Origin: Hymenobacter oligotrophus
GTDB lineage: Bacteria > Bacteroidota > Bacteroidia > Cytophagales > Hymenobacteraceae
Assembly: GCF_003574965.1 (NCBI RefSeq)
Contig: NZ_CP032317.1
Span: 124,001-188,000, forward strand
Direction: 5' to 3'
Length of the DNA stretch: 64,000 bases
Below, piece by piece: positions 1 through 64,000 of this stretch. The notes beneath the pieces are model-generated. The model made no database searches, was not told the origin of the DNA, and worked only from the letters and a program-made list of their open reading frames with translations. The stretch's first letter is position 1; every line of letters starts with the position of its first letter. The position numbers and the translations under genes were made by a program.

Positions 1-449
1 GGCGCGGTGCCATACACATCGGTGGGGCGGCCGCGCCGAATGTTTTCGAGCGTAGAGTTGACGTAGGCGTCGCCCAAAATCAGGCGCACAAAGCTGTCGT
101 CTTCGGCCGCCGACAGCGCACCTAGGCCCGCAAACAGCGAAAACAGCACAAAGGCCAGCAGCATGGGCCGCCAGTGGCGCGCCATCAGCAGGGGCAGCTC
201 GAGGCGCCAAAACGTACCTAGGGGCTGGCGGCGCGTGCTGCGGCGGCGGTACAGTTGCTCATGAAAGCGCGCGGCCAGCTGGTTGAGGTGCTCGGTAACG
301 GGCGCCGAGGGGTAGAACGTACGGGCGTACGCCAGGTCGTCGGTGAGGGCCACAAACCGCTCGGCCAGCTCCTCGGGCGTGCCGGCCGGGGTGTGTTCGT
401 AAGAGTGCCACCGCTCTTGGTTGCGGCGAATGAATACAGCTTCGCGCAT
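1..449 (-). CDS. SpoIIM-like (stage II sporulation protein M family) membrane protein, C-terminus cut off by window edge
   Basis: The minus strand reads from an ATG at 449 to the window edge without a stop, giving about 149 residues. It begins MREAVFIRRNQERW, a start I recognise from the SpoIIM-like membrane proteins of Bacteroidota, continues with a helical soluble part rich in charged residues, and reaches a first hydrophobic segment around residues 95-118. It is divergent from the RDD gene, 88 bp away, a pairing common in this phylum, where these genes often sit beside MoxR/DUF58-type clusters. The name is historical; no sporulation role is implied. The remaining membrane helices lie outside the window. 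Confidence 0.75.
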   Translation of the reverse strand, partial: MREAVFIRRNQERWHSYEHTPAGTPEELAERFVALTDDLAYARTFYPSAPVTEHLNQLAARFHEQLYRRRSTRRQPLGTFWRLELPLLMARHWRPMLLAFVLFSLFAGLGALSAAEDDSFVRLILGDAYVNSTLENIRRGRPTDVYGTA

Positions 450-502
450 AAAGAAACGCCCGACCAAAGGCAGCGGGCGCAAATCGTGTCAGGAAGATTA
501 TA

Positions 503-532
503 TTTTTGAAAGTATTCTCCAATTATAGTTTG
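503..532 (+). promoter_or_regulatory. Candidate promoter for the RDD gene
   Basis: A T-rich TTTTTG box at 503-508 is followed by TATAGTTTG at 524-532, close to the Bacteroidota -33/-7 pattern, in an AT-rich stretch six bases before the ATG at 538. The box spacing is not exact, so this is only a candidate. Confidence 0.35.
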
Positions 533-537
533 CCCCG

Positions 538-1287
538 ATGGCTCAGTTGCGCATCCCAACCACCCAAAACGTTACGCTCGAGTACGAAACCGCCTCTATT
601 GGCGAACGAATTGCCGCCACCTTGCTCGACGGCGTAGTGCAAGCCGGCTGGGTTATTTTGTGGATGCTGCTGCTGTTCGGCGTGTTCGACGTGCAGACCA
701 ACCGCAACGAGGTGCTGTTGGGCGTAATCGTGATTGGATTCGTGGTGCTGCCGCTGTTTTTGTACCACTTGGTGTCGGAGGCGCTGTGGCAGGGCCAGAG
801 CATCGGCAAGCGCATCATGAAGGTGCGCGTTATCAGCCTGAACGGCACGCCGGCGCGCTTTACGCAGTACCTGCTGCGCTGGGTGTTGCGCCTGGTTGAT
901 GTGAGCATGTTCTATGGCATTGTGGCCATTGCCTGCATTTTGGGCAGCGGCCGCGGGCAGCGCCTTGGCGATATGGCCGCCGGCACCGCCGTGGTACGCC
1001 TCAACCGCCGCCAAACCACCGCCGACAACTCCCTGTTCGGTTCCGATTACGACCCCAACTACCGCGTTACCTTTCCGCAGGTAGCGCAGCTCGCCGACCA
1101 CGACGTGCGCCTGATACAAGAGCTGGTAACGCAAAGCGAGAAACGCGGCGCCTACCACATCCTCGACGAAGTAGCCCAGCGCGTACGCACGCTTACCGGC
1201 ATCGAAACCACCATGCCTAACCACGAATTTTTGCTGGTGGTGCTGCGCGATTACGGCTACCTGGCCTCGCAGGCGGCGGCGCGCTAG
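538..1287 (+). CDS. RDD family membrane protein
   Basis: This 249-residue protein opens with a short hydrophilic stretch and then shows the RDD signature: an arginine followed by an aspartate inside the first helix (RIAATLLDG, residues 24-32), a second helix ending before GQSIGKRIMKVRV near residue 95, and a third helix followed by LGDMAAGTAVV near residue 140. The last 90 residues are soluble. RDD proteins are small integral membrane proteins of uncertain role, in some cases linked to ion transport. It is divergent from the SpoIIM-like gene. The stop TAG is part of a CTAGGTGCC motif. Confidence 0.85.
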   Translation: MAQLRIPTTQNVTLEYETASIGERIAATLLDGVVQAGWVILWMLLLFGVFDVQTNRNEVLLGVIVIGFVVLPLFLYHLVSEALWQGQSIGKRIMKVRVISLNGTPARFTQYLLRWVLRLVDVSMFYGIVAIACILGSGRGQRLGDMAAGTAVVRLNRRQTTADNSLFGSDYDPNYRVTFPQVAQLADHDVRLIQELVTQSEKRGAYHILDEVAQRVRTLTGIETTMPNHEFLLVVLRDYGYLASQAAAR

Positions 1288-1384
1288 GTGCCAATTGGCT
1301 GCCGCCCAGGCAACAAGGCCGGCCGCGCCCAACTCCGCTGCCGTTTGGCCGTAGCAGGAGGGTAAACCTTACGCTGATACCGCC

Positions 1385-1780
1385 ATGGCTACCGATAATA
1401 GAAACGACAACGACAAATTCGATTTCGTAAAGGACAACGACCCGCGCGAGTCGCCCAACCTCAGCCCCCAGCCCGAAAACCTGCGCCGGGGCGCCGAGGT
1501 AGCCAACCAGCCCGAGGGCATACCCGGCCAAACGGCCAACCCCGGCCTGCAGGCTCCGCACCAGCAGGCGCCCAACTACGGCGATTTTGGCAAGCCCGAA
1601 AACGTGCTGCCGCAAAGCCAGGCTTCGACCTCCGGCGAAAACTTTCAGCCGTACTACGGCCAGGAAACCCCGCCCGAGCCCGACACCACTCGCCACGGCG
1701 ACACACGTTTCCGGCAGAGCGGCACCCGCAACTGGGAAACCAACGAACCCGAAAACCCGCACCAGGGCTCCGAGAGCTAA
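1385..1780 (+). CDS. Small disordered hydrophilic protein of unknown function
   Basis: The 131-residue product has no hydrophobic segment and is made largely of Asn, Asp, Gln, Pro, Glu and Gly, so it is probably intrinsically disordered. No domain is recognised. It lies 97 bp after the RDD gene on the same strand and is followed by a strong hairpin at 1811-1840, which supports it being a real transcribed gene. Codon use matches the neighbours. Confidence 0.6.
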   Translation: MATDNRNDNDKFDFVKDNDPRESPNLSPQPENLRRGAEVANQPEGIPGQTANPGLQAPHQQAPNYGDFGKPENVLPQSQASTSGENFQPYYGQETPPEPDTTRHGDTRFRQSGTRNWETNEPENPHQGSES

Positions 1781-1810
1781 GCCCACGGGTCCTAGGTGCC
1801 TGATAGCAAT

Positions 1811-1840
1811 AAGCCCCTGCCAGCTTGCTGGCAGGGGCTT
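1811..1840. terminator. Bidirectional terminator between convergent genes
   Basis: Perfect 14-bp inverted repeat (AAGCCCCTGCCAGC and its complement, two-base centre) followed by TTT on the plus strand and preceded by A residues. It separates the plus-strand small gene from the minus-strand fusion gene ending at 1866. Confidence 0.85.
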
Positions 1841-1865
1841 TTTAGTAGCTAAGCAAACCGGACTG

Positions 1866-3590
1866 TTACCCGGCTGTGTGCTGCATCTTGTTTTTGCGAC
1901 CCGGCCGCACGGGTAGGCGGTCTTCGCCCTGGGCCAGCAAATCCTCGTCGCGTTCGGTTTTCTTCACCACCCAGCTTACCGAATACAGGTCTTTGCGCCG
2001 GTCGCGGAGGTTGCGAACGGCCCCGCTGGTGTTCAGGTCCTTCAGTAAGTCCAAGTCGAGGTCGGCGATGAGCGTCATCTCGGTGTTGGGCGTGGCCTCG
2101 GCCACGATGGCGTCGTGCGGGAAGGCAAAGTCGCTGGGGCTGAACACGGCCGACTGCGAGTACTGGATGTCCATGTTCTCGACGCGCGGCAGGTTGCCCA
2201 CCGAGCCGGTAATGGCCACGTAGCATTCGTTTTCGATGGCCCGCGCCTGGGCGCAGAGTCGTACGCGCTGGTAGGCGTTCTTGGTGTCGGTCCAGAAGGG
2301 CACGAACAGGATTTTCATGCCCTCGTCGGAAAGCATGCGCGAGAGTTCGGGGAACTCCACGTCGTAGCACACCAGAATGCCGATTTTGCCAAAGTCGGTA
2401 TCAAAGCACTTCAGCTTGTCGCCGCCGCGCATGCCCCAGTAGCTGGCCTCGTCGGGCGTAACGTGCAGCTTGTACTGCTCGTCCACGGTGCCGTCGCGGC
2501 GGCAGAGGTAGGCCACGTTGTGCAGCTTGCCGTCCTGGTACAGCGGCATCGAGCCGGCAATGATGTTGATGTTGTAGCTCAGGGCCAGCTCCATCATCTT
2601 GGTTTTGATGGGCTCGGTGAAAGCGGCCATGGCCCGAATGGCCACCGAGGGCGTGTCTTCGTTGGTTAGCGCCATTAGGGGCGCGTTGAAGAACTCCGGG
2701 AACATGACGCAGTCGGCTTTGTAGCCCGACACGGTATCCACGAAGAACTCGATCTGCTGAAACAGGTCTTCGAGCGAGCGGGTGCCGCGCATCTGCCACT
2801 GCACAATGCCAATGCGCACGTTGCTCTTAACGTTGCCGATGAGTTTCTCGGCATCCTCGTCGTAGTACACGTTAATCCACTCCAGCAGCGTGGCATAGGC
2901 CTTCGACTCGGAGTCGTAGGGCAAATAGCCGCGGATGATTTTGCGCACGTGAAACTCGTTGGAGAGCTGAAAGGTGAGGATGGGGTCGGTCAGCTCCTTG
3001 TTGCGCACCATTTCCACATACTTAGCGGGCGTCAACTCGTCGGCGTACTTGGCAAAGCCCGGTATGCGGCCGCCCGCCACCATGGCGCGCAGATTCAGGT
3101 TTTCGCACAGCTCCTTGCGCGCGTCGTACAAGCGCCGACCTAGGCGCAGGTTGCGGTACTCGGGGTCCACGAACACGTCGACGCCGTAGAGCGTGTCGCC
3201 GTCGGGGTTGTGCGTGTCGAACTTGCCGTTGCCGGTGATTTTGCCGTAGGTGTGCCGGTCGCCGAAATCGGAGTACTGCACGATGATGGCCAAGGCCGCG
3301 GCCACCACCAGGCCGTTGTCTTCGATGCAAATCTGGCCTTCCGGAAACTTCCGGATCAGGGCGTTGTATTCGTCTTGGGCCCAGGCACCTTCCATGTTGG
3401 AATACACCTTGTCCATGATGTCGCGCACGGCTTTGTAGTCCGATTTGCGGAGCGTGCGCAGCACCAGCTTGTGGGGCTGGGCGGCGTGGCCTTCCTCGGC
3501 GGCGGGCGTAGCGGCCGCAGCGGAAGGAGCGGGTTTCTTATCGGCCTTTTTGGCTTGGCCGTTTGATTTAGCGGAGGAACTCGAAGCCAT
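1866..3590 (-). CDS. GNAT acetyltransferase - carbon-nitrogen hydrolase (nitrilase) fusion protein
   Basis: About 574 residues. After a low-complexity Ala/Lys/Pro leader (residues 1-40) comes a GNAT N-acetyltransferase-like domain (about 42-240, with the acetyl-CoA region around YRNLRLGRRLYDARKEL), then a carbon-nitrogen hydrolase domain (about 260-545). The nitrilase catalytic triad is visible: Glu in MFPEFF, Lys in EQYKLHVTPDE and Cys in LVCYDVEFPE. This two-domain architecture is common in Bacteroidota but its substrate is unknown to me; acylation coupled to amide hydrolysis is an inference. The ATG at 3590 is chosen; the frame is open further upstream to 3620 but that extension looks non-coding. 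Confidence 0.85.
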   Translation of the reverse strand: MASSSSAKSNGQAKKADKKPAPSAAAATPAAEEGHAAQPHKLVLRTLRKSDYKAVRDIMDKVYSNMEGAWAQDEYNALIRKFPEGQICIEDNGLVVAAALAIIVQYSDFGDRHTYGKITGNGKFDTHNPDGDTLYGVDVFVDPEYRNLRLGRRLYDARKELCENLNLRAMVAGGRIPGFAKYADELTPAKYVEMVRNKELTDPILTFQLSNEFHVRKIIRGYLPYDSESKAYATLLEWINVYYDEDAEKLIGNVKSNVRIGIVQWQMRGTRSLEDLFQQIEFFVDTVSGYKADCVMFPEFFNAPLMALTNEDTPSVAIRAMAAFTEPIKTKMMELALSYNINIIAGSMPLYQDGKLHNVAYLCRRDGTVDEQYKLHVTPDEASYWGMRGGDKLKCFDTDFGKIGILVCYDVEFPELSRMLSDEGMKILFVPFWTDTKNAYQRVRLCAQARAIENECYVAITGSVGNLPRVENMDIQYSQSAVFSPSDFAFPHDAIVAEATPNTEMTLIADLDLDLLKDLNTSGAVRNLRDRRKDLYSVSWVVKKTERDEDLLAQGEDRLPVRPGRKNKMQHTAG

Positions 3591-3748
3591 GGTAGCAGAA
3601 TGATGAAACGCGGTGCACAAAAGTAGAAAGTTGGCGGCCGCGCAGGGGCAATACGTAGCAACGCAGCCGAAAGGCTGGGTGTTCCGCTGCCACGCCGCTT
3701 GCTGCCGGCCCTAGGTGCCGGCACTAGCGCCTAGGCCCGGCAGCAACA

Positions 3749-3784
3749 AAAAGCTTCGCCCGGCCCAAACCAAACGAAGCTTTT
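3749..3784 (-). terminator. Terminator after scoB
   Basis: Inverted repeat AAAAGCTTCG / CGAAGCTTTT with a 16-base loop, just downstream (minus-strand sense) of the scoB stop at 3809. A-rich plus-strand flanks give a U-run on the minus-strand transcript. Confidence 0.7.
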
Positions 3785-3808
3785 CAGGTAAGCGACGTTG
3801 CCGGTGGG

Positions 3809-4468: not shown

Positions 4469-4482
4469 AAAGGATTGTTTCT

Positions 4483-4590: not shown

Positions 4591-4594
4591 CTAA

Positions 4595-5399: not shown

Positions 5400-5441
5400 C
5401 CTAGGTGCCGGCGCTACCAACGGGCCCCGGCACCTAGGGCG
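5400..5441. repeat. CCTAGGTGCCGG inverted pair
   Basis: CCTAGGTGCCGG and its exact complement CCGGCACCTAGG face each other across a spacer of about 15 bases. Both halves are extended copies of the CCTAGG motif that recurs through the window; a third CCTAGGTGC lies just downstream near 5453. Confidence 0.75.
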
Positions 5442-5472
5442 CGGCAGGGTAGCCTAGGTGCGCCAGGCCGCA

Positions 5473-9573: not shown

Positions 9574-12500
9574 TCACAGGGCCGTGCGCGGGTCGTCGTC
9601 GATGATGAGCTGTTCGCGGGCTTTGCGGCGGGCCTCCTCGCGGCGGCGCAGGCGCTTGCGGGCAAACAACTCGGTAAGGTTGTCGAACTGCTCGGTGTGC
9701 ACCACCGAAAGGCCGGCCCGCTGCTGGTTGGCAAACTGGGCCTGGTCGCCGATGTCGCGCGGGGTGGTTTCGTAACGCAAACGCACCCTGAACTTGCCGT
9801 CGGCACGCAGGAAATACTCCAGCCCGATGTCGCCGATCAGCGAGTTTTGCGCGGGGTTCACGGAGGTTCCGCTGGTGTTGTTGGTGATGCCGCCCGAGCG
9901 CGTTACGCGCAAGCGGCCCTGCAGCAAGCTGTAGCTCAGGCGTACTTGCAGGTCGCGGAGCTCCTCGGCCGTTACGCCGTCGAGGTTGAAGTCGATTTCG
10001 AGGTTCTGGTCGATTTGCGAGGTGAGCAAGCCGAGCTGCGTCGACAGAATTTGCCCTAGGCTGTTTTGCACGGCGTTGTTGCCGGCAAACAAATCGGGCG
10101 TGCCAAACTGGCCGGGCGCCGAAAGCTGCCGGAACAGCAGCAGCGAAAACACCTGCCGGTTGAGCTCCTGCTCGTCGTTGCGGATGTTGGAGAGGAAGGA
10201 GGTGAGCTGTCCTTCGAGCGTGGTGGGCGCGTCGTTGAACTCGAGGCCCAGCTGAATGCGCGGCAGCAGCATGTCGCCGGTGAGGTGCATTACGGCCGTA
10301 ACGCTCGCAAAAGCGCTGGTGCCCGTGGCATCGGCCCCGGCCAAAATGGGCGCCAACGAGGTGCGCTGGGTGTAGGCCGCGGTTACGTCCATCTGGCCTT
10401 CGAGGGGGCTGCCGTTCCAGGTGAGTGTGCCACCGGGGCGCACCTGAAATTCTTTGTTCACGAGGCCTTGCAGCGTGAAGTTGTAGGCGCCGCGCACCAC
10501 TTCCAGCTGCCCGTACATGTTAAAATCGCCGCGCGTATCGATGTTCATGCGCAACTGCCCGCTGGCCGTGCCCCGGATTACGTCGCCGGTGGTTTCGTCC
10601 AGAATTACCTCCATGTATGCGTCGGGCGTCACGTCGAAAACGCAGTTCAGCAAAATGCCCGATAAATCAACGGCAGCGCTTTTGGGAGCGGCCTGCGCCT
10701 TGGTGGTATCGGCCGGCACGTTGCGGTTTACGAACTGAATGTAGTTGGCCTGCGTGGCGGTGGCGGCGTTATCGAGCGGCAGCGAGAGGCGGGTGCCGGC
10801 TTCGCTGCGGGCCCGCACGTTGATGACCAGATTATCGGTGGGGCCCGTTACGCTGGCCTCGCCCGTGGCGAAGGCCGTGCCGAAGTACAGCTCGTTTTGC
10901 CGGCGCGTGGTGTTGAGCACCTGCATGCGCCGGAAGTTGGCGCGCAACGCCAGGCGCATCTGCTCGAAGCCTTGGTGGTAAATGGTGCCGTCGAGGGTGC
11001 CGGTGTTGCCCAGCACGTCGCGCAGGCGAATGCTCCGGAACACCATGCGGTCCTCGAAAAAGCGAATGTTGTCCTCGAAGGTGTACGTGGTGTTCAGGTA
11101 CGGAAACGTAAACACGCCTTGCCGCACGGCCACGTCGCCGCGCAGGGTGGGCGCCGAAAACGGCCCGACCAGCCGCAGGGTGCCGCGGCCGGTGCCGCCT
11201 AGGTTGGTCAGCACGCCCGCCAAAAAGGGCTCGGCCAGCTTCAGCGGGGCATCGTTGAGGGCGCCGGTAAGATTTAGCTGTTCCTGCGCGGCGCCCGGGG
11301 CAATGGTGCCCGCTACGCTCAGCACATTCAACTGGTCGCGCTCAACGGTGAGGTTCACACCTAGGCGCTTGTTGGGGTTGTCCCAGTTCGACATGCCCGA
11401 CACGTTGCCGATCAGTACGTTATCGAAGTACAGCGAGTCGACGGTGAGGCGCGAGGCGGCCACCAGCTGCCCGAACACGCCGCGCACGTCGCCGGTAGCG
11501 TTTACGCGGCCACGCATGTTCTGGCGCGTAAGCGGCGAAAGGGTCGCTAGCTCCAGGTCTTGTATTTCGAGGTGCAGCGTGCGGGCCGGGTCGTCGGATA
11601 CTTGGCCGGTGGCCAGGATGCGCTGCGGTCCGTTGGAAAGCGAAAAGTTCGGGACGGTTATTTCGTGGCCGGCACCGGCAATCAAAATGGCGTCGTCTTG
11701 GGCAATCGTCCACTCGCGCCCCAGCAGGTTTAGGCCCGATTTGCGGAAGACAATCTGCACGGCGTTCGGCAAAAAATCGAGGGCACCGTTGATGGTGGCC
11801 CGGTTGGTAGTGCCCGTTTGCGCCAACGACGACGAAAAGTTGATTTTGTCTTGGTCCCACACACCTTCGGCGTAAAACTGCTCGGTGCGGCCCAGCACGG
11901 GCATTTCTTGCCGGGCGCTGGTTACGCTGGCCTGGGCCAGCACATCGGGAGCATTGGGCACCTTCGAGGTTAGCAGGTCGAACTCCACGTTGTGGGCCCG
12001 CACGCTGTCGTACTGCACAAAACCCACCTTGCCACCTAGGGAAAGAATGGACGTGGCCCCGTTGCGGAACGAGCCCTCGATGCGCGCCGAGTCGCTGACG
12101 CTGAGCTGCGGCAGGAACACGTGAATCAGCGGGTTGGCCCGCTTCAGCAGCAAGTTCAGGTCGATAGCGTAGTCGGGCGTTACCTGTCGGCGCTTGCGGC
12201 GGTAGTAAGCAGCAGTGGCAGCAGCGTCGCCCTCGAAGTTGAGGCGATACTCCTGAATAAGCTGCCGCACATCGCGCATGGCCTGCGAAAACTGGTAGTT
12301 GCCGCGGGCCCGCAGCCGGAACGCATCGGAGCGCATGGCCAGCAGCCGTTCGCCGTCGCGGCGGTTGGCCAGCACATCCAGTGTGTCGAGGTGCACGGTG
12401 CGGCCGCGTAGGGTTAGGCGGGTATTGCGCAGGTGTATGCGCCCCAGCAGCTCATCGAGCGTGAGGCCCTGAAAGCGCACGTCGGCCTGGGTGCTCACCA

Positions 12501-14148
12501 CCAGCGGCTCGCCGATGATACCTAGGGCCTGCAGGTTGGCGCGGCGCACGTCGGTTACCAAATCGAAAGCCTGCCGGCCGCGGCCCCAGTTGATGTTGCC
12601 TTCGCCCGTGAGCTGCAAGTTGGGGTCGTTGATGTTCACCTTGCCCTCGAACTCCTGGCGGGTAAGGCGGCCGTTGGTTACCACGATGTTCTGGTAGCGG
12701 TAGCCTTTCAGCCAAATGTGCGGTATGGTGGCGTTGGCTTGCAGGCGGGCCGCGTCGGGCGCAAAGCCCACGCCCTCCACGCGCCCGTTCACGGCCACGT
12801 CGCGAATCAACGACTCGTCGCCGAGCAGCTTGCCCAGCTGAAAGCCGGCCGTGCGCACGGTGCCTTCGTAGCTGGAGTTGCGCGGGTCGGTTTTGAACTT
12901 CAGGTTGACGTCGGCCGTGAGCTTGCCCAGGTTGGTTTGGAAGTCGCCGTTGGCTACAAAGTCATTGTAAAAACCTAGGAAATGCCCGTTCAGCTTAACC
13001 GTGCCTAGGCGCTGGAAGTAAGGATACACCGAGGCCGGCAGCACCGGCTGCAAATCGCGCGGGTTGAGCACGGTGCCGGGGCGCAGGCGCAGCTCGGCAA
13101 AGGTTTCCTTCCACTCGGGCAGCCCCTCGGCCGATACGTTGCCGATGATGTGCGTGCCGCCGTTGCTGTACTTTACATTCAGGTTCTTGGCCGCGAAGTT
13201 GCGCACGTAGCCTTTGGCCTCGCCCGATATCAGCACGTGCTCGTGCCACTTTTCGAGCTGGGGTGCAAACTGGGCAATGTCGTCGGAGTACACGCTGCTG
13301 GGCTGCAGCCGCGCCGTTACCTTTACCGAGTCGTTGAAATCGGTGAAGTTGAGGAAGTGCTTGTACTCGAACTTCACGTAGTCGCTCAGGCGGCTTTGGC
13401 CTACGCGCAACGTCAGCTTGTCGAACTCCCAAAACCGCGACGCATACGTCATGTCGGCCGTAAGCTCGCGTAGCCGCGTTTTCGACGGAATATCGGTAGC
13501 CCGCAAGCCGTCGATCTGGGTATGCAAGGTGTCGCCCCGAAACCAGATTTGCGACAGATCGGCGTAAATGCTGTCGACAAACATGTGGGCGTAATCCATT
13601 GAGCGGCCGTACTCGCGGGCCCTAGGTCGGTCTCGGCGGTCGAGCACAAAGCGGGCGTTGCGCAGGGCCACGCGCTCAACCTTAAAGTCGAAGGGCTTGG
13701 CGGTTTTGGTGGTGTCGGGGGCACCTAGCAGCCGCTTGAAAGCCGTCAGAAACTCATCGAGGTTGGTGCGGGCGTTGGGCGCGTTGGGGTAGGTTACCAA
13801 GGCAAACCGGGCCTCGGTAAGGGTAACTTTGCTCAGGTAGAGCTTGTTGGGCGAAAAGATGGAGAACGTGCTGACGTCGGCCTCCAGCTCGCCGATGTAA
13901 AACAGCTGGCCACCGCGGCGGTCGAGCACCTGCACGCGGTCGAGCACCACTTTGGTAAACGGCCGAATGGTTACCTGCCCAATGCTTACGGGCTGTTCGA
14001 GCTTGTCCGACAGGATTTGGGCTGCCCGTTGCGCCACCCGGGTTTGCACCGACGGCACCCGCAAGGCCAGCACCGCCGCGCCCAGCAACAGGCCCAGCAC
14101 GAGCAATAGCCCGAGCAACACCTTCAGGATGGCCTTTATAACTTGCAC
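9574..14148 (-). CDS. tamB: Translocation and assembly module protein TamB family (AsmA-like, DUF490)
   Basis: About 1524 residues from a GTG at 14148. An N-terminal helix (IKAILKVLLGLLLVLGLLL) anchors it in the inner membrane; the rest is a very long repetitive beta-strand protein, as in the AsmA-like bridging family, ending in a TamB domain with SFLSNIRNDEQELNRQVFSLL and YSLLQGRLRVTRSG. These proteins span the periplasm and help outer membrane protein or phospholipid transport. The frame is open upstream to a TTG at 14262, but the membrane anchor begins directly at the GTG. It is divergent from tsaD. Confidence 0.88.
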   Translation of the reverse strand: MQVIKAILKVLLGLLLVLGLLLGAAVLALRVPSVQTRVAQRAAQILSDKLEQPVSIGQVTIRPFTKVVLDRVQVLDRRGGQLFYIGELEADVSTFSIFSPNKLYLSKVTLTEARFALVTYPNAPNARTNLDEFLTAFKRLLGAPDTTKTAKPFDFKVERVALRNARFVLDRRDRPRAREYGRSMDYAHMFVDSIYADLSQIWFRGDTLHTQIDGLRATDIPSKTRLRELTADMTYASRFWEFDKLTLRVGQSRLSDYVKFEYKHFLNFTDFNDSVKVTARLQPSSVYSDDIAQFAPQLEKWHEHVLISGEAKGYVRNFAAKNLNVKYSNGGTHIIGNVSAEGLPEWKETFAELRLRPGTVLNPRDLQPVLPASVYPYFQRLGTVKLNGHFLGFYNDFVANGDFQTNLGKLTADVNLKFKTDPRNSSYEGTVRTAGFQLGKLLGDESLIRDVAVNGRVEGVGFAPDAARLQANATIPHIWLKGYRYQNIVVTNGRLTRQEFEGKVNINDPNLQLTGEGNINWGRGRQAFDLVTDVRRANLQALGIIGEPLVVSTQADVRFQGLTLDELLGRIHLRNTRLTLRGRTVHLDTLDVLANRRDGERLLAMRSDAFRLRARGNYQFSQAMRDVRQLIQEYRLNFEGDAAATAAYYRRKRRQVTPDYAIDLNLLLKRANPLIHVFLPQLSVSDSARIEGSFRNGATSILSLGGKVGFVQYDSVRAHNVEFDLLTSKVPNAPDVLAQASVTSARQEMPVLGRTEQFYAEGVWDQDKINFSSSLAQTGTTNRATINGALDFLPNAVQIVFRKSGLNLLGREWTIAQDDAILIAGAGHEITVPNFSLSNGPQRILATGQVSDDPARTLHLEIQDLELATLSPLTRQNMRGRVNATGDVRGVFGQLVAASRLTVDSLYFDNVLIGNVSGMSNWDNPNKRLGVNLTVERDQLNVLSVAGTIAPGAAQEQLNLTGALNDAPLKLAEPFLAGVLTNLGGTGRGTLRLVGPFSAPTLRGDVAVRQGVFTFPYLNTTYTFEDNIRFFEDRMVFRSIRLRDVLGNTGTLDGTIYHQGFEQMRLALRANFRRMQVLNTTRRQNELYFGTAFATGEASVTGPTDNLVINVRARSEAGTRLSLPLDNAATATQANYIQFVNRNVPADTTKAQAAPKSAAVDLSGILLNCVFDVTPDAYMEVILDETTGDVIRGTASGQLRMNIDTRGDFNMYGQLEVVRGAYNFTLQGLVNKEFQVRPGGTLTWNGSPLEGQMDVTAAYTQRTSLAPILAGADATGTSAFASVTAVMHLTGDMLLPRIQLGLEFNDAPTTLEGQLTSFLSNIRNDEQELNRQVFSLLLFRQLSAPGQFGTPDLFAGNNAVQNSLGQILSTQLGLLTSQIDQNLEIDFNLDGVTAEELRDLQVRLSYSLLQGRLRVTRSGGITNNTSGTSVNPAQNSLIGDIGLEYFLRADGKFRVRLRYETTPRDIGDQAQFANQQRAGLSVVHTEQFDNLTELFARKRLRRREEARRKAREQLIIDDDPRTAL

Positions 14149-14301
14149 GCGGTTGTTGGCGGTGTGGTAGAAAGCGGAGCCGCTGCGCGACTGCCCAGCA
14201 GCAAGACGTAAACGCTGCCCCAACGGATGCTTGTGTGCTCCGAACGGGCAGATAATCTGCAAAAAAAGCTAACTGCCCGCACATAAGCCGCGGATCATCC
14301 T

Positions 14302-21103: not shown

Positions 21104-21212
21104 CGGCCCTGCCAGGGTGGCGGGACAGGGCTTTAGCTCTGGAAATCAATACAAACGCGTTCCGGAGGCGGGCCCTGCGCCGGACGTGTACACGAGGGCC
21201 AACTGCAATATC

Positions 21213-23045
21213 ATGGCAGAAATGGTAGACAACTTCGACTGGGACAACGTCGGAGCCAACAGCTTCGGCGGCAACTACTCGCAAGAGGAGCGCGCCCGTC
21301 TCGAAGAAATGTACGCCGGTACGCTCACCACCGTTGAGGAGGAGCAAGTAGTAAAAGGCACGGTAGTTTCGGTCGGCGACCGTGACGTAATCGTGAACAT
21401 CGGTTTCAAATCGGACGGTCTGGTTCCGCGCTCGGAATTCCGCGACCTGACCGACCTGAAAGCCGGTGACGAGGTTGAAGTATTCATCGAAGACCAGGAA
21501 GATGCCAACGGCCAGCTGATCCTTTCGCGTAAGAAGGCGAAGATCAAGCAGGCTTGGAAGGCCATCTACGACGCGCTCGAAAACGACACCATCCTGGAAG
21601 GTGTAGTTAAGCGTCGTACCAAGGGCGGTCTGATCATGGAGCTGGACGGCGTAGAAGCCTTCTTGCCCGGCTCGCAGATCGACGTGAAGCCCATCCGCGA
21701 CTTCGACATCTATGTTGGTCGTCGCATGGAGGTGAAAGTGGTGAAAATCAACGCCGCTTTCGACAACGTGGTTGTTTCGCACAAAGTCCTCATCGAAAAG
21801 GACCTGGAGAAGCAGCGCGAAGCCATCCTCAACAACCTGGAGAAAGGCCAGATCCTCGAGGGCGTTATCAAGAACATGACCAACTTCGGTGTGTTCATCG
21901 ACCTCGGCGGCGTAGACGGCCTGCTGCACATCACCGACATCTCGTGGGGCCGCATCGCTCACCCGAGCGAGGTATTGCAGCTCGACCAGAAGCTGAACGT
22001 AGTAGTTCTGGACTTCGACGAAGCCAAGAAGCGTATTTCGCTTGGCCTGAAGCAGCTGACCCCGCACCCGTGGGATTCGTTGCCGCAAGACCTGCAGCCC
22101 GGCTCGCGCGTACAAGGCCGCATTGTGAACGTAGCCGACTACGGTGCGTTCATGGAGATTGTGCCTGGCGTTGAAGGCCTGATCCACGTTTCGGAAATGT
22201 CGTGGAGCCAGCACCTGCGCAACCCGCAGGACTTCATCAAGCAGGGCGACGTAGTAGAGGCTCAGATCCTGACCCTCGACCGCGACGAGCGCAAGATGAG
22301 CCTCGGCATCAAGCAACTGACCGAAGATCCGTGGACCCGCGCCGATTTCGGTGGCAAGTACGCTGTAGGTTCGAAGCACAACGGCCTGGTGCGTAACCTC
22401 ACCAACTTCGGCCTGTTCGTAGAACTGGAAGAAGGTGTTGACGGCCTCGTGCACGTTTCGGACCTGTCGTGGACCAAGAAGGTGAAGCACCCCTCGGAAA
22501 TGGTGAAGGTGGGCGACCGTCTGGACGTAGTAGTTCTCGAACTCGACGTGCAGAACCGCCGCCTGGCCCTGGGCCACAAGCAGCTGGAAGAAAACCCCTG
22601 GGACACCTTCCAGACGGTATTCACCCCCGGCTCGGTGCACAAGGCTACCATCACCGAGAAGTCGGACCGCGGCGCCGTGCTGGAGCTGCCCTACGGCATC
22701 GAAGGTTTTGCTTACCCCAAGTCGCTGGCCAAAGAAGATGGCTCGCAGCCTGAAGTAGGCGAGGCGCTGGACTTCCGCGTAGTTGAGTTCTCGAAAGACG
22801 ACCGTCGCATCGTGCTGTCGCACTCTGCAACTTACGGTGCCGGCCAAGAGGAGGAAAACAACCGCGCTGCCAAGTTCCAGAAGAAGAAGCCTGCTGCTGG
22901 CGCTAACGCAGGTGGCAACACCGGCGAAGGCAAAGTTGCCGATCTGAAGAAAGCGGAGAAGTCGACCCTAGGTGACCTCGACGCCCTGAGCGCCCTGCGC
23001 GACCGGATGATGGGTAACGAGCGCGACGCCGAAAACAACGGCTAA
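21213..23045 (+). CDS. rpsA: 30S ribosomal protein S1
   Basis: The 610-residue protein has six S1 RNA-binding domains, visible as repeated units such as VKGTVVSVGDRDVIVNIG, LEGVIKNMTNFGVFIDLGG and HNGLVRNLTNFGLFVELEEG, each ending in a GL-HVS-SW type motif; the first two and the last are more diverged. A Lys/Ala/Gly-rich tail follows. S1 binds mRNA on the small subunit. The ATG at 21213 (MAEMVDNFDWD) is chosen; the longer frame from 21117 would begin inside the leader. Codon use is strongly biased, as expected of a highly expressed gene. Confidence 0.95.
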   Translation: MAEMVDNFDWDNVGANSFGGNYSQEERARLEEMYAGTLTTVEEEQVVKGTVVSVGDRDVIVNIGFKSDGLVPRSEFRDLTDLKAGDEVEVFIEDQEDANGQLILSRKKAKIKQAWKAIYDALENDTILEGVVKRRTKGGLIMELDGVEAFLPGSQIDVKPIRDFDIYVGRRMEVKVVKINAAFDNVVVSHKVLIEKDLEKQREAILNNLEKGQILEGVIKNMTNFGVFIDLGGVDGLLHITDISWGRIAHPSEVLQLDQKLNVVVLDFDEAKKRISLGLKQLTPHPWDSLPQDLQPGSRVQGRIVNVADYGAFMEIVPGVEGLIHVSEMSWSQHLRNPQDFIKQGDVVEAQILTLDRDERKMSLGIKQLTEDPWTRADFGGKYAVGSKHNGLVRNLTNFGLFVELEEGVDGLVHVSDLSWTKKVKHPSEMVKVGDRLDVVVLELDVQNRRLALGHKQLEENPWDTFQTVFTPGSVHKATITEKSDRGAVLELPYGIEGFAYPKSLAKEDGSQPEVGEALDFRVVEFSKDDRRIVLSHSATYGAGQEEENNRAAKFQKKKPAAGANAGGNTGEGKVADLKKAEKSTLGDLDALSALRDRMMGNERDAENNG

Positions 23046-24012: not shown

Positions 24013-26658
24013 ATGAAAATCGTCGACCTCCGCACCATGCGTGGGCCTAGCTACTGGTCCGTGAAGCACCCCAAGATCATCGTGCTGAAACTCGACCTAG
24101 AAGACCTGGCCGATACCTGGAGCAACGCCGTGCCGGGCCTCGATGCGCGCTTGCTGCGCTTGCTGCCCGACCTCGAGAAGCCCCGCAGCAACGACGCCCG
24201 CGAATCGGCGAAGCGCCCGCCGCTTACGTGCGAGCAAATTGCCGACGGCGAGCCGTGGGGGCACATTGTGCAGCACGTGGCGTTGGAGCTGCAGCGCATG
24301 GCAGGCATGCCCATGCGTTGGGGCAAATCGCACCCAGCCCACGAGGAAAACATGGAGATGGTGCTGTTTGAGTACCAGGAGGAGCGGGCGGGCCGCGTGG
24401 CGGCCGAGGCTGCCGTGGACCTGCTGAACGCCTTGGTGCGCAAAGAGAAATACGACGTGCGCGCCATCGTTGATGAGCTGCACGAAATTCGGGAGGAGGA
24501 GTACTTTGGGCCGAGCACCTACAGCATTGTTGCCGAAGCGGCCTCGCGCGGCATTCCGTACATCCAGCTGCGCGAAAGCAACATCATTCAGCTGGGGTAC
24601 GGGGTAAACCAAAAGCGCATTTGGGCCACCACCAGCAGCTACACCTCGCACGCCGCCGTTGAAATTGCGGGCAATAAAAACCGCACAAAGGCCATGCTGG
24701 CCGAAGCCGGGGTGCCGGTGCCGCGCGGTACCACCGTGTACGATGCCGACGAGCTAAAGCAAGCCGTGGAGGATCTAGGCTACCCCATTGTAACGAAGCC
24801 GCTTGACGGCAACCACGGCAAGGGCGCTACCATCAACATCAAGAACTGGAAGGAGGCTTTGGCTGGCCTGAAGGCCGCACAGCAATACTCCGAAGCCGTA
24901 ATTGTGGAGCAATTCATCGAGGGTTTCGACTTCCGGTTGCTGGTGATTAACGGCAAGCTGGTAGCCGCGGCCAAGCGTACGCCAGCCGCCGTTACCGGCG
25001 ACGGGGTACACACCATTCAGGAGCTAATCGACGAAATCAACAAGGACCCGCGCCGCGGGGTGGGGCACGAGAAGGTGCTCACCAAAATCAAGATCGATAA
25101 GCACACCAACCAAATCCTGAAGGCCCGCGAATTGACGCCCAAATCGGTGCTGCCGGAAGGGGAGGTGCTGTACCTTAAGAGCACGGCCAACATCAGCACG
25201 GGCGGCACCGCCACCGACGTTACCGACCTCGTGGACCCGTACAACGTGCTGCTGGCCGAACGCGTGGCTGGCATCATCGGCCTCGACATTTGCGGCATCG
25301 ATGTGCTGACCACCGACATTGCCATTCCGCTAAACGAAACCCGCGGGGCCGTAATCGAAGTGAATGCCGCGCCCGGTTTCCGCATGCACATCTCGCCGGC
25401 CGAAGGGTTGCCGCGCAACGTGGCCGCGCCTGTGGTGGACATGCTCTTCCCGCGCGGAGCCAACTCCCGCATTCCCATTTTCGCCGTTACGGGTACCAAC
25501 GGCAAAACCACTACTACTTTGCTGCTCTCGCACTTAGTGGCCTCCAAGGGCTACAAAGTGGGGCACACCACCACCAGCGGCATTTACATACAAGGGCGGC
25601 AGCTGCAAAGCGGCGACTGTACCGGCTCGCAGAGCACCGAGTTTGTGCTGAAAGACCCCACCGTAAATTTTGCGGTGCTGGAGGTAGCCCGCGGCGGTAT
25701 GCTGCGCTCGGGCCTCGGGTTTCAATACTGCGACGTGGCCGTGGTAACCAACGTAGCCGCCGACCACCTAGGCATGCGCGACATCCACACAGTGGAGGAA
25801 ATGGCCGCCGTGAAGGGCGTGCTGCCGCGCACCGTGCGCAAAAGCGGCTGGGCCGTGCTCAACGCCGACAACGACTACACCTACGCCATGCGCCAGTGGG
25901 TCGATTGCAAAGTGGCCCTGTTTAGCATGGACGAGAACAGCCCGCGCATTCGTAGCCACGTGGAGGCCGGCGGGTTGGCCGCGGTGTACGAAGAAGGCTA
26001 CATCACCATCTACAAGAACACCTACAAGCTGCGCATCGATCAGGCCGAGAACTTTCCCATCACCCTAGGTGGTCGGGCCAAGTTCAACATCGAGAATGCC
26101 TTGGCAGCATCCTTGGCGGCGTACTGCTACGGCTTCGAGAAGGACGACATCAAAACGGCGCTGCGCACGTTTGTGCCCTCGGCTACCAAAACGCCGGGCC
26201 GTATGAACGTCTTCCGCTTTCCCAACTTCGAGGTTATCGTCGATTACGCCCACAACACCCACGGCATCGAGAAATTCGGCGAGTTTTTGGCGGCCACGCC
26301 GGCCTCGCACCGCGTTGGCATCATTTCGGGCCTCGGCGACCGGCGCGAAGAAGACACCATCGATTACGCCCGAACGGCCGGCCGCATCTTCGACGAGGTG
26401 GTGCTGCGGCAGGACCGCGACCTGCGCGGCAAAACCGCCGAAGAGCTGGAGCGCCTCATGCGCTCGGGCCTGATTATGGACAAGCCCAATCTGCCCATCA
26501 CGTACATCGAAGACGAGCTCGACGCCATTGAGTACGCCGTGCAAACCGCCCGCGAGGGTTCGGTTATTACCGTGTTCACCGAAAACATCAAGGGTGCCCT
26601 AGGGAAGCTGGAGGAGCTGCAGGAGCGGGTAGGCCAGCCGCAGCAGCAACCCGCCTAA
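24013..26658 (+). CDS. cphA: Cyanophycin synthetase
   Basis: The 881-residue enzyme polymerises aspartate and arginine into cyanophycin (multi-L-arginyl-poly-L-aspartate), using ATP for each addition. It has the CphA1 layout: N-terminal domain (1-about 160), ATP-grasp domain (about 210-475, with GYPIVTKPLDGNHGKGATIN and VIEVNAAPGFRMH) and a Mur-ligase-like domain (about 490-870) with the P-loop GTNGKTTTT near 494-502 and VVDYAHNTHG-like sequence around residue 745. It is monocistronic, bounded by a strong terminator. No cyanophycinase (cphB) or isoaspartyl dipeptidase gene is in the window. Confidence 0.95.
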   Translation: MKIVDLRTMRGPSYWSVKHPKIIVLKLDLEDLADTWSNAVPGLDARLLRLLPDLEKPRSNDARESAKRPPLTCEQIADGEPWGHIVQHVALELQRMAGMPMRWGKSHPAHEENMEMVLFEYQEERAGRVAAEAAVDLLNALVRKEKYDVRAIVDELHEIREEEYFGPSTYSIVAEAASRGIPYIQLRESNIIQLGYGVNQKRIWATTSSYTSHAAVEIAGNKNRTKAMLAEAGVPVPRGTTVYDADELKQAVEDLGYPIVTKPLDGNHGKGATINIKNWKEALAGLKAAQQYSEAVIVEQFIEGFDFRLLVINGKLVAAAKRTPAAVTGDGVHTIQELIDEINKDPRRGVGHEKVLTKIKIDKHTNQILKARELTPKSVLPEGEVLYLKSTANISTGGTATDVTDLVDPYNVLLAERVAGIIGLDICGIDVLTTDIAIPLNETRGAVIEVNAAPGFRMHISPAEGLPRNVAAPVVDMLFPRGANSRIPIFAVTGTNGKTTTTLLLSHLVASKGYKVGHTTTSGIYIQGRQLQSGDCTGSQSTEFVLKDPTVNFAVLEVARGGMLRSGLGFQYCDVAVVTNVAADHLGMRDIHTVEEMAAVKGVLPRTVRKSGWAVLNADNDYTYAMRQWVDCKVALFSMDENSPRIRSHVEAGGLAAVYEEGYITIYKNTYKLRIDQAENFPITLGGRAKFNIENALAASLAAYCYGFEKDDIKTALRTFVPSATKTPGRMNVFRFPNFEVIVDYAHNTHGIEKFGEFLAATPASHRVGIISGLGDRREEDTIDYARTAGRIFDEVVLRQDRDLRGKTAEELERLMRSGLIMDKPNLPITYIEDELDAIEYAVQTAREGSVITVFTENIKGALGKLEELQERVGQPQQQPA

Positions 26659-40144: not shown

Positions 40145-41842
<1,698 letters not shown>

Positions 41843-60045: not shown

Positions 60046-60133
60046 GCCAAGCTCGCCCACGGTTCAAAACATAAACAATTTGCTGCACCGCCTAGGTGCT
60101 ACGCCACTGTGCGCGGCCTGGCACCTAGGCGGC

Positions 60134-60952: not shown

Positions 60953-61118
60953 CAACGATGGCTATTGTGGTGGGTGCCCGCCGCAGCGCCGGTGCGGCCT
61001 TAACAGGGCGGTGCTAGGTGGCACAATAATAACACTGCCGTAACAGGGGAGCGGGCTTCAGATCAGACCTTTGCACCGAGGTTTGCCCGCTCTGAGCTAC
61101 GGGCGTAACCTAACCTGA

Positions 61119-61147
61119 AAAGCCCCGGCGCCAGGCGCCGGGGCTTT
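61119..61147. terminator. Terminator near the yetF-like gene end
   Basis: AAAGCCCCGGCGCC with its complement separated by one A; ends in GGCTTTGTGTT, directly after the stop of the DUF421 gene (minus-strand sense). Confidence 0.75.
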
Positions 61148-61160
61148 GTGTTGGGGCATG

Positions 61161-61886: not shown

Positions 61887-62074
61887 GGCGGCAACTCTAG
61901 GGCCCGGCTGCGGCCGGGCGGTAGCACAAAAGCGCAGCACCGGTGTGGCGGTGCTGCGCACTTTTACGGAGCCGCGCCAATTTGGGCCGGCGCGCGGGCC
62001 ACATTGCCGCCGAAGCGGTGCCTAAGTGGCTGCCTGCTGCGCGCGGTGCTTGCCGCACCTGGGGCCGCGGCCAC

Positions 62075-63025
62075 CTAGGCGCTGGCCTGGTTGAGGTGAC
62101 GCAAATCGGGGCCGCTGAGCGCGAGGTGCATGGCTTGCAGCAAATCCTGCACTTGCTCGGGGCTGGTGGCGCTGGCAATGGGCGCCGTGAGGCCGGGCTG
62201 GGCCATAATCCAGGCCAGGGCAACCTGGGCGGGCGTGGCACCTAGGCGGGCCGCTACTTCATCGAGGGCACTTACTATGCGCAGGCCGCGCTCGTTGAGG
62301 TACTTGGCCCCCACGCCGCCGCCGCGGGCGCTTTTCTGCAAATCGGCTGCGGAGCGGTACTTGCCCGTCAGGAAACCCGCCGCGAGGCCGTAGTACGGAA
62401 TGACGCCCAAGCCGTGCTGCTGGCACACAGGCAGCAGGTGCTCCTCAAAATCGGCGCGGTCGTAGAGGTTGTAGAGGGGCTGCAGGCTTTCGTAGCGCGG
62501 CAAGCCGTGCTGCGCGCTGGCGTGCAGGGCTTCGGTGAGGCGCTCGGCCGAAAAGTTGGAAGCCCCAATGGCGCGCACCTTGCCTTCCTGGATAAGCTGG
62601 GCATAGGCCTCGAGCGGTTCGGTTACGGGCACGGTGGGGTCGTCTTTGTGCGACTGGTACAAATCGATGTAGTCGGTTTGCAGGCGCTTCAAGGAGCCTT
62701 CTACGGTGCGCAAAATGTAGCTTTTGCTAAGGCCTTTCTGATCGGGCGCTACCTCCCAACCTACTTTGGTGGCGATGACGACGTCGTGGCGGCGGCCGCG
62801 CTGCTTCAGCCATTTGCCGATAATGGTTTCCGACTCGCCGCCGTGGTGCCCGGGTACCCACACCGAGTAACCGTGGGCCGTGTCGATGGCGTTGCCGCCC
62901 CCGGCCACAAAGGCATCGAGCACCCGAAAAGAAGTGGCTTCGTCGGCCGTCCAGCCGAACACGTTGGCGCCCAGCACCAGCGGCGCAATCGAGAGGCCCG
63001 AGCGGCCCAAAGAGCGTTGTTGCAT
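62075..63025 (-). CDS. Aldo/keto reductase
   Basis: The 316-residue protein is an NADPH-dependent TIM-barrel aldo/keto reductase of the YajO/Tas-like group. GLSIAPLVLGANVFGWTADE, the catalytic Asp/Tyr in NAIDTAHGYSVW, KVGWE with the catalytic Lys, YIDLYQSHKDDPTVP and IPYYGLAAGFLTGKYR are present. Substrate unknown. The TAG stop lies in CCTAGG. It is divergent from the deacylase gene at 63179. Confidence 0.9.
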   Translation of the reverse strand: MQQRSLGRSGLSIAPLVLGANVFGWTADEATSFRVLDAFVAGGGNAIDTAHGYSVWVPGHHGGESETIIGKWLKQRGRRHDVVIATKVGWEVAPDQKGLSKSYILRTVEGSLKRLQTDYIDLYQSHKDDPTVPVTEPLEAYAQLIQEGKVRAIGASNFSAERLTEALHASAQHGLPRYESLQPLYNLYDRADFEEHLLPVCQQHGLGVIPYYGLAAGFLTGKYRSAADLQKSARGGGVGAKYLNERGLRIVSALDEVAARLGATPAQVALAWIMAQPGLTAPIASATSPEQVQDLLQAMHLALSGPDLRHLNQASA

Positions 63026-63178
63026 AGTCGAAATCGGAAAGAAAAGCCGCCCAACGGCGGATGACGCAAAATAAAAGCAGCAACTACCCCGGCGGGCCAT
63101 GCTGCCAAGCCAGTGCATACGCAAACCAACCGGGCGGGGCCGGCCGCAGCTTGCGCGCCGCGCTGTATCTTGGGCACT

Positions 63179-64000
63179 ATGCCACGGTTTCGTTTACCTG
63201 TTTTTAAGAGCCACCGCCTGGCCCGCTGGCCTTGGTTGGTGGCCGCGTTGCTGCTGGCCGCCAATGGCGCCCAGGCCCAGCAGGCACCTAGGGCTTCGCT
63301 TATCATCCGAAACGGGCGCGTGCTCGATGGCTCCGGCAACTCTTGGTTTCGCGGCGACGTGGCCGTGCACCAAGGGCGCATCGTGGCCGTGGGCCGCCTG
63401 CCGGCCAACTTCCTGGCCGATACCGTTATCGATGCCAACGGCTTGGTGGTAGCGCCGGGGTTTATCGATGTGCACACCCACATCGAGGACGATGAGCTGC
63501 GCCAGCCCACCGCCGACAACTTCATTTACGACGGGGTAACCACGGTAATTACCGGCAACTGCGGCTCCTCGCGCCTCGACATAGGCCGTTACTTTCAGGT
63601 GCTCGATAGTGCGCGGCTGTCGGTGAACGTGGCCTCGCTTATTGGCCACGGCGATGTGCGCAAGGCCGTGCTGGGCCGGGCCAAGCGCCAAGCTACCGAG
63701 GCCGAGCTGCAGCAAATGGAGCAATTGGTAGCCCGCGCCATGCAAGCGGGCGCCGTTGGCCTGTCCACGGGGCTGATTTACATACCCGGCACCTACACCC
63801 GCACGCCCGAACTGGTGCGCTTGGCACGCGTAGCGGGGCAGTACCGCGGCCTCTACGCCACGCACATGCGCAACGAAGGCGACAGTGTGCTGCAGGCCAT
63901 ACAGGAGGCGCTGCTGATTGGCCGCGAAGCCCGCTTGCCGGTCCAGATTTCGCACCTGAAAATAGGTGGCAAGCAGAACTGGGGCCGCGCGCCGCAAGCT
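63179..64000 (+). CDS. N-acyl-D-amino-acid deacylase family amidohydrolase (start only)
   Basis: 274 codons are visible, open to the window edge. Signal peptide about 1-35 (ending GAQAQQ), then LIIRNGRVLDGSGNSWFRGD, the metal-binding GFIDVHTHIEDDE (HxH), VTGNCGSSR, LIGHGDVR and GLSTGLIYIPGTYTRTPEL, ATHMRNEGDSVL and QISHLKIGGKQNWG, all as in D-aminoacylases of the amidohydrolase superfamily. Exported, so likely periplasmic. About half the protein is beyond the window. Confidence 0.88.
   Translation, partial: MPRFRLPVFKSHRLARWPWLVAALLLAANGAQAQQAPRASLIIRNGRVLDGSGNSWFRGDVAVHQGRIVAVGRLPANFLADTVIDANGLVVAPGFIDVHTHIEDDELRQPTADNFIYDGVTTVITGNCGSSRLDIGRYFQVLDSARLSVNVASLIGHGDVRKAVLGRAKRQATEAELQQMEQLVARAMQAGAVGLSTGLIYIPGTYTRTPELVRLARVAGQYRGLYATHMRNEGDSVLQAIQEALLIGREARLPVQISHLKIGGKQNWGRAPQA

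What the first reader, a model, noticed from the sequence alone, without database searches (positions are those of the whole stretch)
121..63293. CCTAGG palindrome occurs about 90 times across the window
Counting by eye gave about 90 copies of CCTAGG, roughly one per 700 bp. With about 60% GC, base composition alone predicts about 20. CTAG tetramers are normally rare in bacteria, and here most CTAG copies (all but about 25 or 30) are inside CCTAGG, mainly with A or C before and T or G after (ACCTAGG, CCTAGGT). Copies lie both inside genes (rpsA, cphA, pyrG, tamB) and between them, on no particular strand. The pattern resembles HIP1 (GCGATCGC) of cyanobacteria: a short palindrome multiplied over the genome, possibly kept by methylation, repair bias or a DNA-binding protein.
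Basis: partly seen in the sequence, partly recalled or inferred. Interest (0 to 1): 0.72.

Follow-up and report, generated by a model that had tools for sequence, protein, structure and literature searches.

The report
Iterated CCTAGG palindrome without matching methylase
A six-letter DNA palindrome, CCTAGG, has been multiplied to thousands of copies across the chromosomes of a few bacteria related to Hymenobacter and is actively kept there, much like a famous unexplained repeat in cyanobacteria, but no DNA-marking enzyme that would match it was found.

Summary
Confirmed: the window holds exactly 90 CCTAGG (20.9 expected from composition, 10.9 from a second-order Markov model); the 4.19 Mb genome holds 5678. 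It is a Hymenobacteraceae close to Solirubrum puertoriconensis. Among 204 family genomes 9 exceed 5000, 4 lie at 1209-2331, the rest at 54-888. The nine are not one clade (at least 4 changes on a pyrG tree), and clades differ in the bases flanking the hexamer. In the window's clade the flanks exclude each other (exactly one A/T side in 524 of 622 sites; 311 expected). The motif fills 40% of usable Leu-Gly codon pairs (poor relatives 0-3%, own small contigs 2%) and is conserved at synonymous sites (CTA kept 84% inside, 35% outside), so it is maintained. Each of five methyltransferase families searched, and Vsr, is missing from at least one rich genome; in the window's genome only an HsdM-like and an MmeI-like enzyme were found, and the latter's target domain does not track the motif. 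It behaves like cyanobacterial HIP1 without the methylase link. Most likely: selection for a chromosome-wide binding site of an unidentified protein; biased repair is the main rival.

The parts
121..63292 (.). 90 copies of CCTAGG spread over the window; 79 read CCTAGGT on at least one strand
   Evidence: spacing tested on 196 kb that include the window
9574..14262 (-). tamB: 8 copies (10055, 11198, 11360, 12035, 12521, 12974, 13004, 13621)
   Evidence: Pfam TamB; positions
22967..22972 (.). single copy near the 3' end of rpsA (21117-23045 +)
24013..26658 (+). cyanophycin-synthetase-like gene: copies at 25767, 26064, 26598
40172..41842 (+). pyrG: copies at 40429, 41062, 41518; this gene was used for the family tree (codon positions 1 and 2)
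5400..5458 (.). cluster of three copies (5400, 5433, 5453) spaced 33 and 20 bp
3710..3735 (.). pair of copies 20 bp apart in a GC-rich stretch that looks, by eye, like an inverted repeat

Best explanation
CCTAGG is a highly iterated palindrome that behaves like HIP1, on the chromosomes of a few Hymenobacteraceae lineages, gained by point mutations and then actively kept. SHOWN: genome-wide enrichment, lineage-specific gain or loss, clade-specific flanks, heavy use of permissive sites, conservation at synonymous positions, near-absence from the sampled small contigs, and no tested DNA-methyltransferase family or Vsr common to the rich genomes. INFERRED: the force is weak selection, site by site, for a chromosome-wide binding site of a sequence-specific host protein that is not a cognate DNA methyltransferase. 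The core CCTAGG is read in all lineages, while each lineage's version of the protein reads the flanks differently; in the window's clade it reads the site in one orientation (S-CCTAGG-T), which is why the two flanks exclude each other. Many such sites would mark the resident chromosome as self (nucleoid binding, recombination or repair), and newly arrived plasmids would lack the mark.
For: Whole genome 5678 copies. Family survey: 9 of 204 above 5000, 4 of 204 at 1209-2331, the other 191 at 54-888. Outside the family the highest counts seen were 807 among 38 same-order genomes and 734 in a phylum sample of 395. The nine rich genomes, a set defined by count before the tree, are rejected as one clade (p-AU 4e-50), with at least 4 changes on a one-gene pyrG tree, intermediates left out. 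Flank dialects: clade A has exactly one A/T flank in 524/622, 301/355, 193/244 sites against 311, 177, 122 expected if sides were independent; clade B (61 sites) has A/T on both sides in 38; D has G/C on both sides in 138/159; no clear exclusion outside A. In G000 the dialect is the same between genes (119/146) and in genes (291/342), so it acts on DNA. 297/734 usable Leu-Gly pairs in G000 are written NNC-CTA-GGN against 1/131, 0/132, 4/148 in poor sisters and 3/176 on its small contigs, at about the same rate in all codon-bias quartiles (0.38-0.43). CTA inside CCTAGG is kept in 103/122 (G007) and 97/140 (G005) against 59/169 and 50/220 elsewhere; the flanking T is kept as well (54/61 and 62/73 against 135/255 and 128/316). 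Methylases: PF00145 and PF01555 (22 genomes, 4 of the 9 rich) are both absent from G000; PF02086 is absent from all 9 rich and 4 intermediate genomes; PF02384 and PF07669 are absent from G007; MmeI-like enzyme excluded as common writer; no Vsr in 7 of 9 rich. Near-miss hexamers are not cleared: 6 of 9 one-off classes are commoner in rich than in poor genomes, which fits selection with mutational decay better than a repair ratchet.
Against: No protein has been found; an unbiased gene-content comparison could not be run. Spacing is random (CV 0.98, simulated 1.03 +/- 0.06) and use of permissive sites does not fall with codon bias, which also fits a mutational or repair drive. As whole hexamers, TGCGCA and CCGCGG are lost about as rarely as CCTAGG (0.17, 0.19, 0.18). 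The one small-contig stretch that I compared (L161) is 90.6% identical over 72% to a plasmid of another Hymenobacter, so the small contigs may have arrived recently. Methylase families outside the five tested (e.g. MT-A70, the MmeI models themselves) and non-methyl modifications were not searched; two of the five were searched in only 4 of the 9 rich genomes. The tree rests on one gene, and the clade B dialect on 20 kb per genome.
Confidence: 0.48

Rival explanations
1. Biased mutation or mismatch repair (a ratchet as in Elhai's HIP model, but without a cognate methylase): a mismatch-processing nuclease or glycosylase favours CCTAGG whenever one strand carries it, so copies pile up with no function.
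For: Usage independent of codon bias, random spacing, both arms of terminator-like stems converted in examples seen by eye, e.g. CCTAGGTGC...GCACCTAGG. Pull on amino acids: motif CTA codons align with a non-Leu residue in three poor sisters in 74/259 comparisons against 71/391 for other CTA codons, p=0.002, the same G000 sites being counted up to three times; Leu-Gly itself is conserved in 22/39 motif against 64/80 other pairs in G003, 25/38 against 57/71 in G002, but 20/27 against 41/49 in G006. CCCAGG/CCTGGG is at 0.65 of the poor level in rich genomes and supplies 12 of 21 scored gains.
Against: 6 of 9 one-off hexamer classes are commoner, not rarer, in rich genomes. Recent conversion of one-off sites in 64 kb is not clearly raised: 0/44, 0/45, 3/49 with 0.46, 0.32, 0.68 expected (small numbers). 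Vsr is absent from 7 of the 9 rich genomes.
Confidence: 0.3
2. Cognate DNA methylation, as proposed for HIP1: an orphan CCTAGG methyltransferase of a family not searched here, or one that was lost recently, made or keeps the sites.
For: [quoted passage not shown] Other palindromes are enriched in relatives (CTATAG in Pontibacter burrus), as varied type II specificities would give.
Against: PF00145, PF01555 and PF02086 gave no match in G000; G007 has no match to PF00145, PF02384, PF02086 or PF07669, and its one PF01555 enzyme sits beside a SmaI-family nuclease. The MmeI-like enzyme has a 98% identical MTase domain but a 53% identical recognition domain between G000 and G005, which share motif and dialect, and a 99% identical recognition domain between rich G058 and poor G049. 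The sites are conserved among the three members of clade A.
Confidence: 0.14
3. Polar or uptake signals (Chi, KOPS, DNA-uptake sequence): CCTAGG marks self DNA for recombination, segregation or transformation.
For: Nearly absent from the small contigs, dialects between clades, asymmetric octamer in clade A.
Against: No consistent orientation along the chromosome in the sampled stretches, origin not mapped; little conservation beyond one base on either side, whereas known uptake words are longer (e.g. the 10-mer in PMC1939737); the clade B and D forms are symmetric; only 9 of 204 family genomes have it at full density.
Confidence: 0.08

Closest known systems
HIP1 (GCGATCGC) and alternate HIPs of cyanobacteria (Elhai 2015, PMC4390886)
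   Same: Short GC-rich palindrome at about one per kilobase over the genome, present in some lineages and replaced or lost in others
   Different: Different sequence and phylum; no cognate methylase found (though Elhai also notes some HIP1-rich genomes without a CGATCG MTase); clade-specific flanks, mutually exclusive in one clade; single differences from the motif lie mainly at the central two bases, not at the outer ones
DNA uptake sequences (Pasteurellaceae, Neisseriaceae; PMC1939737, passages)
   Same: Many copies of a self-specific short word; lineage dialects (dialects recalled)
   Different: Palindromic 6-8 bp core instead of a longer non-palindromic word; link to competence not tested
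Chi sites (recalled)
   Same: Chromosome-enriched short words
   Different: No consistent orientation along the chromosome; palindromic core; present in few relatives
Dcm/Vsr very-short-patch repair (recalled)
   Same: A repair system known to shift CTAG-type word frequencies
   Different: Vsr is expected to lower CTAGG rather than raise CCTAGG, and is absent from 7 of the 9 rich genomes

Membership tests
HIP (highly iterated palindrome) | short palindrome over-represented to about one per 1000 nt over the whole genome | tested here: met
   5678 in 4.19 Mb, one per 738 bp; 11-19 per 10 kb in fourteen sampled chromosome stretches
HIP (highly iterated palindrome) | in and between genes, on no fixed strand | tested here: met
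   genic 11.8, intergenic 30.5 per 10 kb with my own ORF caller; no consistent orientation
HIP (highly iterated palindrome) | sporadic gain and loss among relatives | tested here: met
HIP (highly iterated palindrome) | genome carries a methyltransferase able to methylate the sequence | tested here: not met
   no candidate in G000 or G007 among PF00145, PF01555, PF02086, PF02384, PF07669; other families not searched, so absence is not complete
HIP1 proper | sequence GCGATCGC in a cyanobacterium | tested here: not met
   CCTAGG in Hymenobacteraceae
Chi / KOPS-type polar signal | orientation bias along the replichore | tested here: inconclusive
   forward/reverse CCTAGGT counts in sampled stretches show no consistent bias, but the origin was not mapped
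DNA uptake sequence | conserved word of about 9 bp or more | tested here: not met
   little conservation beyond one base on either side
DNA uptake sequence | preferred in natural transformation | not testable with these tools
   needs an experiment
Vsr/Dcm signature | Vsr and a Dcm-like m5C methylase present | tested here: not met
   PF03852 absent from 7 of 9 rich genomes (present in G005 and G109); PF00145 absent from G000, G007, G058 and present in G005, the other five rich genomes not searched

The most novel reading that the evidence does not exclude
A methylation-independent class of iterated palindrome: a chromosome-wide self mark read by an unknown protein whose flank specificity evolves into dialects, and which in one clade reads a palindromic core in one orientation so that the two flanks exclude each other. 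HIP1 in cyanobacteria would then also need a reader other than its methylases.
Probability: 0.35. Interest if true: 0.87.

Novelty: new variant of a known kind. Interest (0 to 1): 0.7.

Why it matters
HIP1 was described in 1995 and its cause is still open; the leading clue is its link with methyltransferases (Elhai 2015). Here is a separate case in another phylum in which no matching methylase was found, with several rich lineages on the tree next to poor ones (in the window's genus, aligned DNA is 79-82% identical to poor sisters and 88-89% to rich ones). That makes the cause findable: the gene or process should differ between close relatives. The force is strong, since 40% of usable Leu-Gly pairs carry the motif.

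Tried and rejected
Methylation: PF00145 and PF01555 were searched in 22 genomes (4 of the 9 rich), PF02384, PF02086 and PF07669 in 31 (all 9 rich and 4 intermediate); each family is missing from at least one rich genome. Rich genomes do have other methylases: for instance G005 hits PF00145, PF01555, PF02384 and PF07669, and G058 hits PF01555, PF02384 and PF07669; their specificities are unknown. The MmeI-like enzyme looked promising because clade A's site is asymmetric, but among 12 such proteins (chosen from the PF07669 hits) the recognition domain does not follow the motif; whether G007 has one was not settled.

Vsr repair: rejected as a general cause, since it is absent from 7 of 9 rich genomes. 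G005, which has Vsr, shows 28 of 35 scored losses going to CCCAGG/CCTGGG, but the same pattern can be read as gains in the other two species, so this stays unproven; CCAGG counts do not decide it, since the poor genomes without Vsr look like G005.

Spacing-selected function: gaps are Poisson-like. Polar signal: no consistent orientation. Translational cause: the pattern is equally strong between genes and independent of codon bias. Base composition as the cause of dialects: G000 and G058 have nearly the same G+C (0.61, 0.62) but different flanks.

The recent-gain test in 64 kb was too small to decide; the set was enlarged for gains and losses. Literature: in the rows listed by seven searches of the open-access library (three of them listed only part of their hits) I saw no paper on CCTAGG iteration or on iterated palindromes in Bacteroidota. 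PMC4390886 was read as outline and abstract, section 18 (part 1 of 2) and sections 12, 17 and 19; PMC1939737 as passages. Papers of subscription journals are largely missing from the library.
Full report
OBSERVATION. The window holds exactly 90 CCTAGG, 4.3 times the composition figure and 8 times a second-order Markov model, with the highest ratio to the third-order model of the 64 palindromic hexamers. The genome (4 contigs, 4.19 Mb) holds 5678, one per 738 bp. The tool's control, the reversed word GGATCC, occurs 67 times but is itself avoided, so it is a poor yardstick; scaled composition gives about 1370. Density is even along the chromosome: 11-19 per 10 kb in each of fourteen sampled 20 kb stretches.

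WHERE IT OCCURS. rpsA relatives place the genome in Hymenobacteraceae, nearest to Solirubrum. Sister G007 has the contig length of Solirubrum puertoriconensis MC1A and G158 that of Hymenobacter setariae Fur1 (an inference). In the 204 family genomes held, nine exceed 5000 copies (G000, G005, G007; G109, G115, G190; G158, G173; G058), four lie at 1209-2331 and the other 191 at 54-888. Outside the family the highest counts were 807 among 38 same-order genomes and 734 in a phylum sample of 395. On a pyrG tree of 44 chosen genomes (codon positions 1 and 2) the nine are not one clade (p-AU 4e-50); clades A and B are not one (6e-6) and C plus D is not rejected (0.22), these two groups having been named after seeing the tree; at least four changes are needed, intermediates left out. 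The tree is one gene.

DIALECTS. The hexamer is constant but its neighbours differ by clade. Clade A (G000, G005, G007): exactly one flank is A/T in 524/622, 301/355 and 193/244 sites against 311, 177 and 122 expected if the sides were independent. Clade B (one 20 kb stretch per genome): A/T on both sides in 38 of 61. Clade C (97 sites): mixed, close to independent. Clade D: G/C on both sides, 138/159. Intermediate group E (46 sites): mostly G. Clear exclusion between the two sides is seen only in clade A. In G000 the pattern is as strong between genes (119/146) as inside genes (291/342), so it acts on DNA. Beyond one base on either side there is little conservation (at most about 0.1 bit).

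STRENGTH. In genes the motif can sit as x-Leu-Gly (NNC CTA GGN) or Pro-Arg (CCT AGG); the third frame would hold a stop. Leu-Gly predominates, 155 against 22 in 184 kb of G000. In G000 297 of 734 usable Leu-Gly pairs are written this way, 105 of 154 when the preceding codon has A in the middle, against 1/131, 0/132 and 4/148 in three poor sisters and 3/176 on G000's own small contigs. Use does not depend on codon bias (0.38-0.43 in four quartiles). Intergenic density is 2.6 times genic (30.5 against 11.8 per 10 kb). Gaps are Poisson-like. Some terminator-like inverted repeats carry it in both arms, seen by eye.

MAINTENANCE. Aligned to rich sisters, a Leu CTA codon inside CCTAGG stays CTA in 103/122 (G007) and 97/140 (G005) cases where Leu is conserved; elsewhere in 59/169 and 50/220 (p about 1e-17 and 2e-18). 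The flanking T is kept likewise. In poor sisters almost no site is present: 0/39, 0/47, 1/49 aligned. Of 21 scored gains 12 come from CCTGGG/CCCAGG and 4 from CCGAGG/CCTCGG. The pull touches proteins: motif CTA codons align with a non-Leu residue in poor sisters in 74/259 comparisons against 71/391 for other CTA codons, p=0.002, with the same sites counted in up to three sisters; per sister, Leu-Gly conservation is 22/39 against 64/80, 25/38 against 57/71 and 20/27 against 41/49, the last being weak. Against 15 other palindromes the loss rate is 0.18, the others 0.17-0.52; TGCGCA (0.17) and CCGCGG (0.19) are as stable, so hexamer-level conservation alone is not decisive and the codon-matched test is the stronger one.

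NO METHYLASE FOUND. G000 (99.97% complete) has no match to PF00145, PF01555, PF02086 or Vsr. Its one PF02384 hit is HsdM-like, and a PF07669 hit below the curated cut-off is an MmeI-like protein. G007 has no match to PF00145, PF02384, PF02086 or PF07669; its single PF01555 enzyme lies beside a SmaI-family nuclease. Other rich genomes carry methylases of several families whose specificity is unknown; PF00145 and PF01555 were not searched in G109, G115, G190, G158 and G173. The MmeI-like protein occurs in rich and poor genomes alike, and its recognition domain is 53% identical between G000 and G005 (MTase domain 98%) but 99% identical between rich G058 and poor G049. Families not searched include MT-A70, and non-methyl modifications.

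READING. It works like HIP1 (PMC4390886, parts read). [quoted passage not shown] That link was tested here and not met, so I do not file this as HIP1. I favour selection for binding by an unknown protein, because 6 of 9 one-off hexamer classes are commoner, not rarer, in rich genomes, whereas a repair ratchet should clear them; the choice between selection and repair drive is not settled. The small contigs lack the motif (3 in 82.7 kb for G000; 7 in 80 kb sampled from two G005 contigs), but the one stretch compared resembles plasmids of other Hymenobacter and may be a recent arrival.

NOVELTY. In the rows listed by seven searches of the open-access library I saw nothing on CCTAGG iteration or HIPs in Bacteroidota. 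A table in PMC1939737, in what appears to be its E. coli column, gives the octamer GCCTAGGC as 0 seen against 151 expected (passage), an example of avoidance elsewhere.

Noticed in passing
L039 (Pontibacter burrus), whole locus: CTATAG occurs 38 times in 21.8 kb, 9 times the second-order Markov expectation: a second, different iterated palindrome in a relative.
   Followed up: no
L049 (Cytophagales MAG UBA10427): GGCGCC 11 times in 12 kb, 5.5 times expectation.
   Followed up: no
L005-L027 and window: TGCGCA is 1.4-3.1 times over-represented in most of these Hymenobacter loci, 2.2 times in the window, and conserved between sisters: a milder, widespread enriched palindrome.
   Followed up: partly
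L168:3398-6958 (-) and L316: MmeI-like enzymes of G000 and G005 share 98% of the MTase domain but only 53% of the recognition domain: a likely specificity swap between sister species.
   Followed up: yes
L096:1372-3150: Methylase beside a SmaI-family nuclease in G007; the 3.7 kb locus has 1 CCTAGG.
   Followed up: partly
L140-L143, L281-L285 (G005): G005, the only clade A member with Vsr, has 28 of 35 scored CCTAGG losses to CCCAGG/CCTGGG; G000 6 of 15, G007 1 of 12. Possible erosion by Vsr, or gains in the other two.
   Followed up: partly
L160-L164 (G000 small contigs): Three small contigs nearly free of CCTAGG; the one stretch compared, L161, carries conjugative transposon genes and matches Hymenobacter plasmids at 90.6% over 72% and 93.1% over 49%.
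   Followed up: partly
family survey: GGATCC counts vary from 0 to 645 between family genomes, suggesting strong, variable avoidance of GATC-type sites.
   Followed up: no
L175 (G005 contig 2): TTATAA 12 times in 20 kb, 0.7 expected.
   Followed up: no
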